The notes beneath the pieces were generated by a model. That model saw only the letters and a program-made list of their open reading frames with translations. It ran no database searches and had not been told where the DNA came from. From the NCBI GenBank assembly GCA_964017195.1, contig OZ024892.1, positions 10,586,866-10,650,865 of the forward strand: 64,000 nucleotides of DNA, read 5' to 3'. The first letter of the stretch is position 1. Each line of letters opens with the position of its first letter. Shown in pieces: positions 27,301 through 33,300 of the stretch. The position numbers were made by a program, and so were the translations under genes. Source of the stretch: Siderastrea radians. Lineage: Eukaryota; Cnidaria; Anthozoa; Scleractinia; Rhizangiidae.

Positions 27301-30300
27301 AGTTTTTGTAGTATGTACGTTGAATGAGTTATCATTAGTAGTTTTTAATTCTAACTCTTAGTAGTTTCTAGTTTTGACTCTGTGCTAATTCGTTTTTTAT
27401 TTTTAAATTGTATTTTAGAAAGTTAGGTGTCCTCTATTAGCAGTGGGGAATCCCCTCTGCTAGATTTTTGCTTGACACGTTAATAAAATCATTACTATTA
27501 CTATTACTATTACTATTACTATTACTATTACTATTACTATTACTATTACTATTACTGTTACCAACAATGCTGGTTCACTTAGACACACAACCAACATTGC
27601 CACCCAACCAATGTTGGGCTTGTTGGGAAAAAATATTGGAACAATGATGACAAGTGTGGTAGTGCAGATGATGTGGATTTGCACTTTAAGTCGTATTATT
27701 GATTCATGTTTCATGTCTCGGAAATCTTAACGCGAAGGGCCTCTATTAGAAATGTTTGGACATTTTAACGTCTTGATACGTCTTTCGCTCCAACGTGTAA
27801 AATTTCGGACGTTTAGTTTTGTCCGGAATTTGAACGTCCGGAAATTTTCGCAATTAATGTATGCCCTGACTACTGTTAGTGCCAGTAAAGGAATGCGTGT
27901 TAGTGCCAGTAATGCACCTATCAATTTAAAGCCGGTGGGGGGGGGGGGGGGGCAGGGCATGGGGTGGGGATTTGATTGTTATTGTTGACCCTGGGGTGGG
28001 TCTTTTGACTGATCTTGCCTTCCCGGGGGAGGGGATATTTGAATCTGTCTTCACCCAATGTGGGGATATTGAACATCGACTTGAATGAAGAGACTCAGAC
28101 TGAAATTACTTTTCCTGCGTCACGCACGCACTATACGTCCTTGAAATCATAATGGATGTCCACGAGATCGATGGATCGATCGAGATCGATGCTTGACACG
28201 TTAATAAAATCATTACTATTACTATTACTATTACTATTACTATTACTATTACTATTACTATTACTGTTACCAACAATGCTGGTTCACTTAGACACACAAC
28301 CAACATTGCCACCCAACCAATGTTGGGCTTGTTGGGAAAAAATATTGGAACAATGATGACAAGTGTGGTAGTGCAGATGATGTGGATTTGCACTTTAAGT
28401 CGTATTATTGATTCATGTTTCATGTCTCGGAAATCTTAACGCGAAGGGCCTCTATTAGAAATGTTTGGACATTTTAACGTCTTGATACGTCTTTCGCTCC
28501 AACGTGTAAAATTTCGGACGTTTAGTTTTGTCCGGAATTTGAACGTCCGGAAATTTTCGCAATTAATGTATGCCCTGACTACTGTTAGTGCCAGTAAAGG
28601 AATGCGTGTTAGTGCCAGTAATGCACCTATCAATTTAAAGCCGGTGGGGGGGGGGGGGGGCAGGGCATGGGGTGGGGATTTGATTGTTATTGTTGACCCT
28701 GGGGTGGGTCTTTTGACTGATCTTGCCTTCCCGGGGGAGGGGATATTTGAATCTGTCTTCACCCAATGTGGGGATATTGAACATCGACTTGAATGAAGAG
28801 ACTCAGACTGAAATTACTTTTCCTGCGTCACGCACGCACTATACGTCCTTGAAATCATAATGGATGTCCACGAGATCGATAATCAGAGAAACGTAGGTGA
28901 ATTTGGCTGTTTTATCTCCATATTTTCTATTAATTTAGAGTGGTTTTGTTGATTTGCATGTTTTTAACGGGGATAAAGAGAAACAAAGTAGATTTTTTGG
29001 CCAGTGCAAACGATCAGTGTACGGGCAATGTGCCGCTCGGGGTGGGGAAATTTTTGTGCATTTGACTGGAATAATTTGCCCGTGGGCAGGGAATTTGACG
29101 GCAAATTTTTGAAAAATGTCAAATCCCCACCCCATGCCCTGCCTCCCCCCCCCCCCGCCGGCTTTAAATTGATAGGTACATAACGAAATGCGTGTTAGTA
29201 CCAGTAACGCAATGCGTGTTAGTACCAGTAACGCAATGCGTGTTAGTGCCAGTAACGCAATGCGTTTTAGTACCAGTAACGCAATGTGTTTTAGTACCAG
29301 TAACGCAGTGCGTGTTAGTACCAGTAACGCAGTGCGTGTTAGTACCAGTAACGCAATGCGTGTTAGTACCAGTAACGCAATGCGTGTAGTCTGGTGATAA
29401 AGAAGAGGTTGATATTGCTCTTTCTCTTTGTTAGTTACTGAGGATGAAGCCCAGGAAGTTCTTCTTCCGCCTGGCATTAATGAACTCGAAGACTGGGAAA
29501 ACCCAACGGTACCCACCCAGGGTGACATGGAATTACAAAAACTCAGAGCAGATTCCCAGGTATACTAACTTGATCACAGTAAGGAGGTTTAAATTAATCA
29601 CCGTTGTGTAATTTACAGAGCTCTTATCTCCGTGGACATGTTTACGAAAAAGTGGACTGGCCGGTGTCACGCTGTTAAAAGTAACATTGTTGAGCAGGAC
29701 TGGCCAGTGTTACATTGTTAATAATACCGTTGAGCATTTTAAAGCTGTCTTCCTGTTTTTTTATTTTGTCACTCCTCTCTGTGCTTTGTACTTTTTAGGT
29801 CTCCAATGTGGACTACTCGTGCCTTCCTGGAACCGAGCCCCAAGACAACTCCAGCAGTAATGACAGCACCCTTCCAGGCATCAGAATCATTCCCAGTCTT
29901 TCTCTCTTCAACAGCACTATTTTGAGAAAACAAAGCCTCTCCAAGACATTTTCCCATCCTGGCTTAAGTCAACGATTATTTGAGGCTGAAGGTACTCCAC
30001 CGTCGAGGAAGCCAAGCATCGTGAGAGTTAGCTCGTGTCCTCCAGCTATCGAGGTTGGTCGACACGAATTATGTCCTCCAGCCATCGAACGACACACAAG
30101 AGCCATACCAAACCAGGAGCCCAACAGAGACGACGATCAGGCCACTAATGCAAATCTGGACCTGCCTTTGTCAGTACAACTGGAATTACCAGTGTTTGGC
30201 ACATGTACAGAAAACACTGTCAATGTGAGCTCTGAAGAAGTGAATTCTAGTGAGGATAGCAGCAGTGATGGTGACGATGGTCACAGCACTGAGTTTAATG

Positions 30301-33300
30301 CAGAGGCTTTGGCCATGAAGTCTCTTGCAGGGTTCGTGAATTCATCTGTGATGGCCCCAAGTTCTGCTGCTGGTGTCTGTCAAGATGAGGAACAAAGTGG
30401 CTCATCACTCTACATCACAGCTGGATTTGCGGGTGGATCCGTCGTACCGCCTTCAAGTTCTGCTGAAATCTATCACGATGAAGACCTAGGCAAAGAAGTA
30501 ACCAACGAGACCCCATTACAATGTGGCACATCTCCGTACATCAAGCTTGGCAACACTTCGACAACGCGTGAAGGACTTATGAGTGGATCTGTCATGCCGT
30601 CTTCAAGTTCTGTTGCTGACGTCTGCAACGATGAAGAACATACCATTGCACAAACTGAAAAATCGAGAGCTGGTTCTTACGTGAGTCTCTCCACAACTCC
30701 ACGAGGCAGTAAACCGCAAGGTCAAGCCAAAGGTGTTAACATTCTGCCGGGCACATCAACACATCACAGCACTGTTAAGGACTCCTCTACTTACGCTGCA
30801 TCACCACAAAGTTGCTTAAGCAACATGGGTGCCGCAAGTTCCAGTTTCTCAACACCAGATGGTCAGAATGTTGAGCAGCAGTTGCCAGGGGACGACTCTG
30901 ATGTTAGCTCTCTTTACATGGAAACTTTGGGAAACCAGGGTTGCTCGCCCTCAGAAACAGGATCACCTCCCAAAGATGCTGCTCTTTCTTTTAACTCACC
31001 AGATCAGCTTTTGGCCTCATTCTCAAATCTCAAACAACAAAACGGAGTGAAAGGTGATGAGCTCGCGGAGTTTATGTGTGATGATGAAGATAGTTCAGCT
31101 CGGGAAGGATCCTCTCCGCTGATTTCCAGCGATGAGACAGATACATCTTCTCGAGATGACGCAGAATTAAGCCTGGGTAAGATGTTCCACACTGGATTTA
31201 ATCGAATTTTGAACGACGACAATGCTGAAAGTGACAAAGTCTTAGACCCTTGCGCATTAAACAGTTTCTTTGGGTTTGAGCTGGAGACCATGTCAGAACA
31301 ACTACCGTTGGTCAGCGAAGATGCCAGTGGCTCTCGCGTTCAGTTGCCTGCGGAAATTGATATGGACAATTACAAACTGTTTATGGGCTTCCTCGACATG
31401 GAAGAGACAGGCAACCACGAGTCCGTACCTGAAAGCTATTTTTCAGGAGAGAACCAAGAGGTTTTCAGCAATCCTTGTCTTGATCACGATGCATTGCTTT
31501 CCAAGATCGCATCATCTAACTCCGCTCCTGTAGTACCTGAATTCAATTTGAGTACATCGGAGCTAGACAACAGCACAGACACTAGGGAAGAGAATGTAGA
31601 AGAAAATGAGGAAGACGACGATGATGATGCTAATGACAATGAGATGAACATGCCATCCGGGACTGTGAGGTTTTCTCCGGGTAAGGTTAATTTCCTTAAT
31701 TCCCCAATCTTGATGTTTGACCAAGGACAGGAGACTTTCGAAATGAAGGATTTCTCATTAAATAATCTTTCGAAGGAAAGTATGAAATCAACAGAACTCC
31801 TTTTTTTCAAAGACAATCAGTCCGTTGTCCAAGCAATGAGTTCGAATCAACTTGATGACGGGCTCAGTGAAGATGGCTGCACACTTGATGATGACCTAGA
31901 ACCCGACGATACAACTGACGTATTTGCAAGTCCTTCTCCATATTCCTGTAGAGCTGATGTAGATGGACGCCTTAAAGGTAGGCATATGGAACTCTTTTCT
32001 AAAGAGTCGATCTCTCAGTTTACTATCAAGATTGGCCACAGTAGAATCACGGAGAGCAGTAGTATTTGCCAGGTTCATATATTATAAATATGGTCCCTTG
32101 GGCATTATGTGGGACACAACCTTTAAGTCCAATGGGCTTTCTCACCCAGTCACGAGATTAAATGTCATCGCATTAGGAGTTTCATTATGTCAAATTTATG
32201 CCCTGTTGCGATGCCAAACATACAGAATCAGAAACTCAAGTTTACCGTTCACGTTCAACTGGGAGTATTATTATTCACCTTGCTGGAGAAGATAGTCCCC
32301 CAGCATTTCGTCAACGCCCTAGTACCCGTTATGATGATACACCGCGATGTCAACTCGATGTCAACCATTTTTTCCTCACTGAGGCTGATGGCCAATGAGA
32401 CCAATATAGGAGCAGCATATTTGGGAAAGAAAAGGGAACAAAAATATTTCTTTCCCCAAAACACAACACATAACACTGTTAAGAGCTTAAAGCCAATGAA
32501 CTACCCATTTAATATTGACCACCCTGTCTCTCCCATTGCTTAGCTTGTTGAATGTCATTGTCACCCTATAGAAATTAATGGTACACCACCTGCGCAATCT
32601 GATGGTGGTGGGTACATTCGCAATGAAGCACATCCTGTGAACGGTGAGAGTCTTGGCAGTGGTTATCAAAAGACTCCTGAACCAGTACAACAAGAAGCGG
32701 GAGCCTCTCTTCGGAAGTCTTCGGAAGGAGTCTGGCCACCGCCTAATTCAACTGATGCAATTGTCAAGAGAAGATTAACTGGTATGTTAAGTTTTTACTA
32801 CGGTAAAGTGTTTTAAAGCGGACACTTGGTCACTTAAACGTACCAAATGAAAGTAGTGCTTCGAGTAGCTTTTATTTATTTATTTATTTATTTATTTGCT
32901 TGTTTGTTTATTTATTTACTGATTTAGTATAAAAACACTTAAGCTACTTGCAAGTATCATTTTACGAGGTACAGAAACAACAGGACACGAAGTCCCCTAC
33001 AGGGTTACTCCACCAGCCCAATCCCAAAGTCAAATTACAGAAAATATGAACAATCTTATAAAACAAGTATATTGATGGCTTTAATGGTAACTGCGGACTG
33101 AAAGCCACATTAAAGGTCTCCTTAAGGTGCTTTTTCAGTGAATAACGTGGAACTGGACAGAAAACGATTTATTGAACCATTGAACAATTTATTGAATTTA
33201 TTGGTCTGACATGGTTTTTCACTTATCAGGCTCATGTTCATCGTCGGGAGAAGATTTGCGAACCATCCAATTGGATATGACCAAGATTCCTTCTAACCTT

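What the first reader, a model, noticed from the sequence alone, without database searches (positions are those of the whole stretch)
29435..32781. A JAK with about 838 extra residues between its pseudokinase and kinase domains
In the sequence, exons 20-22 join in phase between the end of JH2 (exon 19) and the start of JH1 (exon 23), and the 30-exon model sums to an exact multiple of three. Known JAKs have only a short JH2-JH1 linker, and that interface is where JH2 restrains JH1. A disordered block this long, nearly as large as a small JAK itself, would change how the two domains can touch. I know of no described JAK with such an insert.
Basis: partly seen in the sequence, partly recalled or inferred. 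Interest (0 to 1): 0.88.

Follow-up and report, generated by a model that had tools for sequence, protein, structure and literature searches.

The report
Coral JAK kinase with giant spacer
A stony-coral version of the signalling enzyme JAK carries 838 extra, apparently floppy amino acids between its regulatory and catalytic halves; other corals share this block and a sea anemone has a spacer of the same length, so it is a real feature and a natural test of how JAK enzymes are held in check.

Summary
Exons 20-22 (29435-29559, 29799-31977, 32572-32781) join in phase to exons 19 and 23; the rebuilt 30-exon gene (6342-41452) encodes 1901 residues, 838 of them from these exons. It is no artefact of fusing two genes: an 1830-residue ORF on a 5745-base contig (P0005, most simply a spliced transcript), an Oculina patagonica model (P0004) and a Stylophora model (P0006) carry the block in the same place. 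Nematostella (P0030) has a spacer of equal length. The JH2-JH1 gap is 785-882 residues in these five, against 22-220 in 31 other proteins passing a JAK-type filter.

It is a JAK by architecture, by FERM-SH2 profile (best solved match JAK2, E 1e-27) and by JH2 grouping (99/94). JH1 alone is not placed with other JAKs.

AlphaFold finds no fold in the large exon (mean pLDDT 35.5, shallow alignment). Coral spacers are 37-39% identical; the anemone's shows no detectable homology. Best reading: a flexible tether that loosens JH2-JH1 restraint and serves as a phospho-docking platform, with a pair of [RK]xxSxP sites the best candidates; the docking is inferred. New variant of a known kind.

The parts
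6342..17705 (+). Exons 1-11: N-terminus, FERM and SH2 (residues 1-490)
   Evidence: Model, guided by tblastn of P0004; FERM-SH2 profile hits JAK2
18623..25870 (+). Exons 12-19: JH2 pseudokinase (residues 491-755), catalytic loop HGRLSAHNV in place of HRD
29435..29559 (+). Exon 20, first spacer exon (125 nt)
   Evidence: matched by P0004 residues 753-796
29488..29499 (+). EDWE element just after JH2, also present in P0004, P0005, P0006 and P0030
   Evidence: Alignment; likeness seen by eye, not tested
29799..31977 (+). Exon 21, large spacer exon (2179 nt, 726 codons)
   Evidence: matched by P0001-P0004 and by P0005 and P0006
29943..29960 (+). KTFSHP, first [RK]xxSxP site
30024..30041 (+). RVSSCP, second [RK]xxSxP site, 27 residues after the first
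30537..30548 (+). YIKL tyrosine motif (in 5 of 8 spacer sequences)
30678..30689 (+). YVSL tyrosine motif in AGSYVxL (in 6 of 8 spacer sequences)
31681..31977 (+). Stretch of exon 21 left out if the internal in-frame donor after 31680 is used (297 nt)
   Evidence: Donor CGG|gtaagg; matches the join in P0004 isoform X2
32572..32781 (+). Exon 22, last spacer exon (210 nt)
   Evidence: join seen in P0005
33230..41452 (+). Exons 23-30: JH1 kinase (residues 1594-1901) with [11 protein letters not shown] and YYK activation loop

Best explanation
The gene is a coral JAK whose JH2-JH1 linker has become an 838-residue disordered spacer, a state shared by at least the stony corals examined and, in length, by Nematostella. 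I infer that JH1 is a loosely tethered kinase: the restraining contact with JH2, if kept, forms in cis at a lower effective concentration and can also form in trans. The spacer then works as a phospho-regulated docking platform. A basophilic Ser/Thr kinase marks the two [RK]xxSxP sites near JH2 so that a 14-3-3 dimer can bind, and JH1 (in cis or from a partner) marks spacer tyrosines that recruit SH2 proteins. Shown: the spacer, joins supported by orthologues, conservation among corals, predicted disorder, the motif pair. Inferred: phosphorylation, 14-3-3 and SH2 binding, and the looser restraint.
For: Same block and place in P0004, P0005, P0006; equal length in P0030. Spacer identity among corals 37-39%, with islands kept. 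AlphaFold of exon 21: mean pLDDT 35.5, no residue at 70 or above. Pair of [RK]xxSxP sites 27-36 residues apart early in 7 of 8 spacers, including Nematostella; 1-10 of 2000 shuffles had such a pair; one such site in 1 of 103 other inter-kinase linkers, that one not a JAK. Tyrosine motif AGSYVxL in 6 of 8. Tandem repeats holding tyrosines in P0004 (GY[IV]SNQEL) and P0030 (five GYVP[HQ] units). Precedent: JAK2 Y813 lies in the JH2-JH1 linker (variant table of PMC10572942, passages); that it docks SH2B proteins is recalled.
Against: No binding or phosphorylation data. The pair rule was set after seeing the sequences, the coral rows are related, and the other linkers are shorter and so have fewer chances. 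P0006 lacks the second site by this rule. YxxL counts are not above shuffles in the corals. The conserved tyrosine motifs are missing from P0005 and P0030, a repeat tyrosine is F in P0001 and P0002, and the window spacer has no significant self-repeat. Coral and anemone spacers show no detectable homology.
Confidence: 0.5

Rival explanations
1. Passive spacer: new coding sequence arose inside the JH2-JH1 linker and drifts under little constraint. It tethers and nothing more, and JH2 restrains JH1 much as in other JAKs.
For: No detectable sequence homology between coral and anemone spacers although length is similar; lineage-specific repeats; tyrosine motifs not enriched in corals. The chain estimate still allows cis contact at about 0.12 mM.
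Against: 37-39% identity among corals with strongly kept islands, the serine pair in 7 of 8, and a length held at 785-882 residues.
Confidence: 0.3
2. Splice-regulated module: exons 20-22 are an in-frame block whose use is tuned. Skipping them would leave a 1063-residue JAK with a 29-residue, vertebrate-like linker; an internal donor trims 99 residues.
For: Both outer borders are phase 1 and the 2514 nt are divisible by three. P0004 isoform X2 matches the internal donor.
Against: No protein without the spacer was found among the coral hits (capped or word-limited searches); no transcript data; only exon 22, exons 20+21 or all three can be skipped in frame.
Confidence: 0.15
3. Artefact: exon 21 belongs to another gene, or the region is misassembled.
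For: A run of 200 N at 26736-26935 and duplications about 709 bp apart (27492-28880) lie in intron 19.
Against: The same order occurs in P0004, P0005 and P0006 from other sources, and P0005 is one uninterrupted ORF on a 5745-base contig.
Confidence: 0.02

Closest known systems
Vertebrate JAK1, JAK2, JAK3 and TYK2
   Same: FERM, SH2, JH2, JH1 in that order; HG loop in JH2 and YY in JH1 (TYK2 row P0119)
   Different: JH2-JH1 linker about 15-30 residues (PMC5770812, passages; 22 in P0119) against 867
Arthropod JAK (hopscotch)
   Same: Same domain order and HG loop where it could be read
   Different: Linker 75-165 residues in 40 named rows
Oculina LOC144636662 isoform X2 (P0004), Stylophora model deposited as EGFR (P0006), unnamed P0005
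   Same: Orthologues with the same spacer in the same place
   Different: Spacer 785-848 residues, 37-39% identical to the window's; P0004 has internal repeats
Nematostella LOC5516063 isoform X2 (P0030)
   Same: Same domain order, spacer of 882 residues, EDWE element and two RxxSxP sites at like places
   Different: No detectable spacer homology; five 19-residue GYVP[HQ] units

Membership tests
JAK family | N-terminal FERM followed by SH2 | tested here: met
   Profile of four hexacoral FERM-SH2 stretches: the three best PDB hits are JAK2 FERM-SH2, E 1.1e-27 to 1.3e-27, over positions 22-418 of 421; SYK follows on SH2 alone at 2.5e-24. Pfam alone is weaker: in the window protein SH2_1 is over its cut-off (32.7 against 27), FERM_F1 (25.1 against 26.1) and FERM_M (14.8 against 23.8) are under
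JAK family | Pseudokinase JH2 before the kinase, related to JH2 of other JAKs | tested here: met
   HG instead of HR(D) in 19 of 20 chosen JAK-architecture proteins (loop not found in P0037) and in 0 of 18 domains of nine other proteins. All 16 JH2 domains split from the rest at 99/94; long branches could contribute
JAK family | C-terminal JH1 tyrosine kinase grouping with JAK JH1 | tested here: inconclusive
   [11 protein letters not shown] and YYK present, but YY is also in 8 of 18 other domains. Hexacoral JH1 falls with other kinases at 91/79; one clade of all JH1 is not rejected (p-AU 0.585 in the larger quick set; 0.091 in the careful set). A clade of hexacoral JH1+JH2 is not rejected either (0.616 and 0.184). 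By search score many JAKs rank high after the orthologues, but in PDB EGFR, RET, FGFR and ACK score like JAK1 and TYK2
JAK family | Short JH2-JH1 linker | tested here: not met
   867 residues against 22-220 in 31 filtered proteins. A usual trait of described JAKs, not one that defines the family
JAK family | Binds cytokine receptors and activates STATs | not testable with these tools
   Needs experiments. Even the search for STAT (PF02864) in this genome did not complete

The most novel reading that the evidence does not exclude
Hexacoral JAKs carry their own receptor-like tail: the spacer supplies phosphotyrosine docking sites that in vertebrates sit on the cytokine receptor, and a 14-3-3 dimer on the serine pair next to JH2 gates whether JH1 can fold back on JH2. 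JAK restraint would then be a switchable tether and not a fixed two-domain clasp.
Probability: 0.15. Interest if true: 0.85.

Novelty: new variant of a known kind. Interest (0 to 1): 0.6.

Why it matters
Whether JH2 restrains JH1 in cis or in trans is discussed as open for JAK2 (PMC5770812, passages). A natural JAK with about 870 residues between the two domains separates tethering from contact, so the question can be tested directly. [quoted passage not shown]

Tried and rejected
Separate gene or bad join for exon 21: rejected, three coral proteins have the same arrangement. Exon 21 ending at 32072 with acceptor 32544: also in phase, but P0005 shows the 31977-32572 join, so set aside. Paralogues in this genome: of the 25 places scored (of 597 candidates) with the Oculina protein, FERM, SH2 and spacer matched only at the window; one 24% match to the JH2 part and the other matches elsewhere are kinase domains; single copy is therefore likely, not proven. 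Bivalve and Lingula JAKs of 1538-1617 aa as further long-spacer cases: rejected, they have a third kinase domain after JH1. Homology of coral and anemone spacers: not supported. Tandem tyrosine units in the window spacer, suggested by eye: not supported (self-score 57 against shuffle maximum 77 of 20). YxxQ, YxN and YxxP as enriched docking motifs: not supported; Y.P is above chance in Nematostella through its repeats (1 of 400 shuffles; P0005 36 of 400). NCBIfam: only generic kinase models under their cut-offs. The profile comparison printed nothing because of an option clash and was rerun. Liongue and Ward 2013 was not held.
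Full report
GENE. From splice sites and homology to an Oculina protein I rebuilt the gene at 6342-41452 (+): 30 exons, 5706 nt, 1901 aa, one terminal stop. Exons 1-11 encode FERM and SH2, 12-19 JH2, 20-22 the spacer, 23-30 JH1. Exons 20-22 add 2514 nt = 838 codons between two phase-1 borders. Between kinase-profile envelopes the gap is 867 residues. The window lies in an 804.8-Mb genome of 439 contigs; the nearest named relatives are stony corals, but the species was not identified.

IS IT REAL. A search with the spacer region returned four proteins at E 5.5e-75 to 1.5e-60: P0004, an Oculina patagonica model of 1879 aa with SH2 and kinase domains, and P0001-P0003, ORFs of 795-817 aa that match the large exon and carry no Pfam domain. 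A search with the FERM-SH2 part of P0004 returned P0004, P0005 and P0006. P0005 is an 1830-aa ORF on a 5745-base contig; as the window gene spans 35 kb, a spliced transcript is the simplest source (inference; an intronless copy is not excluded). P0006 is a Stylophora model named 'Epidermal growth factor receptor', cut short at its N-terminus. A JH1 search returned P0030, Nematostella LOC5516063 isoform X2, with an 882-residue gap. Oculina and Stylophora are Scleractinia and Nematostella is Actiniaria, all Hexacorallia. P0005 shows the 31977-32572 join; P0004 matches an in-frame donor 297 nt earlier. No RNA of the window species was seen.

HOW UNUSUAL. Gaps: window 867, P0004 848, P0005 785, P0006 789, P0030 882. 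Among proteins under 1700 aa with two or three kinase domains whose first passes a degenerate-loop filter, 31 others have 22-220. That filter dropped many insect rows whose loop did not fit the pattern; 40 named arthropod JAK or hopscotch rows, counted apart, have 75-165. Only the best 120 of 3477 JH1 matches were listed, so this is a sample. Vertebrate linkers are about 15-30 residues (PMC5770812, passages).

IS IT A JAK. For: a FERM-SH2 profile of four hexacoral sequences finds JAK2 first (E 1.1e-27) over positions 22-418 of 421; the window protein passes the SH2_1 cut-off; JH2 has HG for HR(D), as in 19 of 20 chosen JAK-architecture proteins and 0 of 18 other kinase domains; all 16 JH2 domains split off at 99/94 in a careful tree. 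Against: SYK scores nearly as well on SH2 alone; FERM_F1 and FERM_M are under their cut-offs in the window protein and no FERM model is listed for Nematostella at E 0.05; hexacoral JH1 falls with other kinases at 91/79, one JH1 clade is only weakly tolerated (p-AU 0.091), and a separate hexacoral JH1+JH2 clade is not rejected (0.184) (the larger quick tree gave 0.585 and 0.616). I file it as a JAK on architecture, FERM-SH2 and JH2, with JH1 unresolved.

THE SPACER. AlphaFold on exon 21 with three homologues gives mean pLDDT 35.5, no residue at 70 or above, no helix and no strand of reportable length. With four sequences this supports but does not prove disorder. Identity of the window to coral orthologues is 37-39% in the spacer, 53-65% in FERM-SH2 (P0006 part only), 57-69% in JH2 and 62-73% in JH1. 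To Nematostella the spacer is at the level of shuffled sequence (23% against mean 22.4, maximum 25.7 of 20 shuffles; profile score -11.7 against shuffles up to 9.9), while JH1 is 48%, JH2 35% and FERM-SH2 33%. What the two share is place, length, composition, an EDWE element (by eye) and the pair of [RK]xxSxP sites. The pair, 27-36 residues apart, occurs in 7 of 8 spacers; 1-10 of 2000 shuffles had one. The rule was set after seeing the sequences and the coral rows are related, so these are not independent tests. One such site stands in 1 of 103 other inter-kinase linkers of 60-900 residues, most of them much shorter. That RxxSxP is a 14-3-3 type site is recalled. AGSYVxL is in 6 of 8 and YIKL in 5 of 8, but YxxL counts are not above shuffles in corals. 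Self-repeats are significant in P0001-P0004 and P0030, not in the window, P0005 or P0006 (20 shuffles each).

MECHANISM. In vertebrate JAKs the N lobe of JH2 contacts the N lobe and hinge of JH1, and cis or trans is debated for JAK2 (PMC5770812, passages). A Gaussian-chain estimate with my own parameters gives about 0.12 mM for 867 residues against 0.9-4.5 mM for 22-30 residues at 3-4 nm, 7- to 37-fold less. Cis contact would be loosened but possible. JAK2 Y813D is listed among JH2-JH1 linker variants (PMC10572942, passages); that Y813 docks SH2B proteins is recalled. LNK, an adaptor that binds JAK2, is held off JAK2 by 14-3-3 (PMC8781068, passages), an analogy only. I favour a flexible docking tether (0.5) over a passive spacer (0.3) or a splice-regulated module (0.15).

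LITERATURE. Ten searches listed no paper whose title or abstract start describes a long JH2-JH1 spacer or a coral JAK protein; the lists were capped. I saw passages of PMC8662651, PMC3296744, PMC11193209, PMC3723955, PMC5770812, PMC10572942 and PMC8781068, and no paper in full. PMC3296744 mentions Nematostella only for SOCS genes in the passage seen.

Noticed in passing
P0043, P0055, P0058, P0059, P0078: Four bivalve proteins and one from Lingula, some deposited as JAK2, have a third kinase domain after JH1 (1538-1617 aa).
   Followed up: partly
P0052: An unnamed protein of a eukaryote collection (eukprot) has SH2, a FERM_M match, an HG-type JH2 and a JH1 with a 127-residue linker: perhaps a JAK outside animals; its organism was not shown.
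   Followed up: partly
P0006: The Stylophora orthologue is deposited as 'Epidermal growth factor receptor' and lacks most of the FERM part.
   Followed up: yes
P0004 JH1: The Oculina kinase loop reads HKDLAARN where the window, P0005, P0006 and P0030 read HRDLAARN.
   Followed up: no
P0007-P0013: Unnamed proteins of 2729-3167 aa with 10-11 kinase domains in a row.
   Followed up: no
window 27492-28880 and 29157-29420: Intron 19 holds two copies, about 709 bp apart, of a unit (98-100% identical pieces) and an array of 24-bp repeats right before exon 20.
   Followed up: partly
window 8855-8914: Just after exon 2 the intron holds a near copy of that exon's end ([14 protein letters not shown] beside [12 protein letters not shown]).
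   Followed up: no
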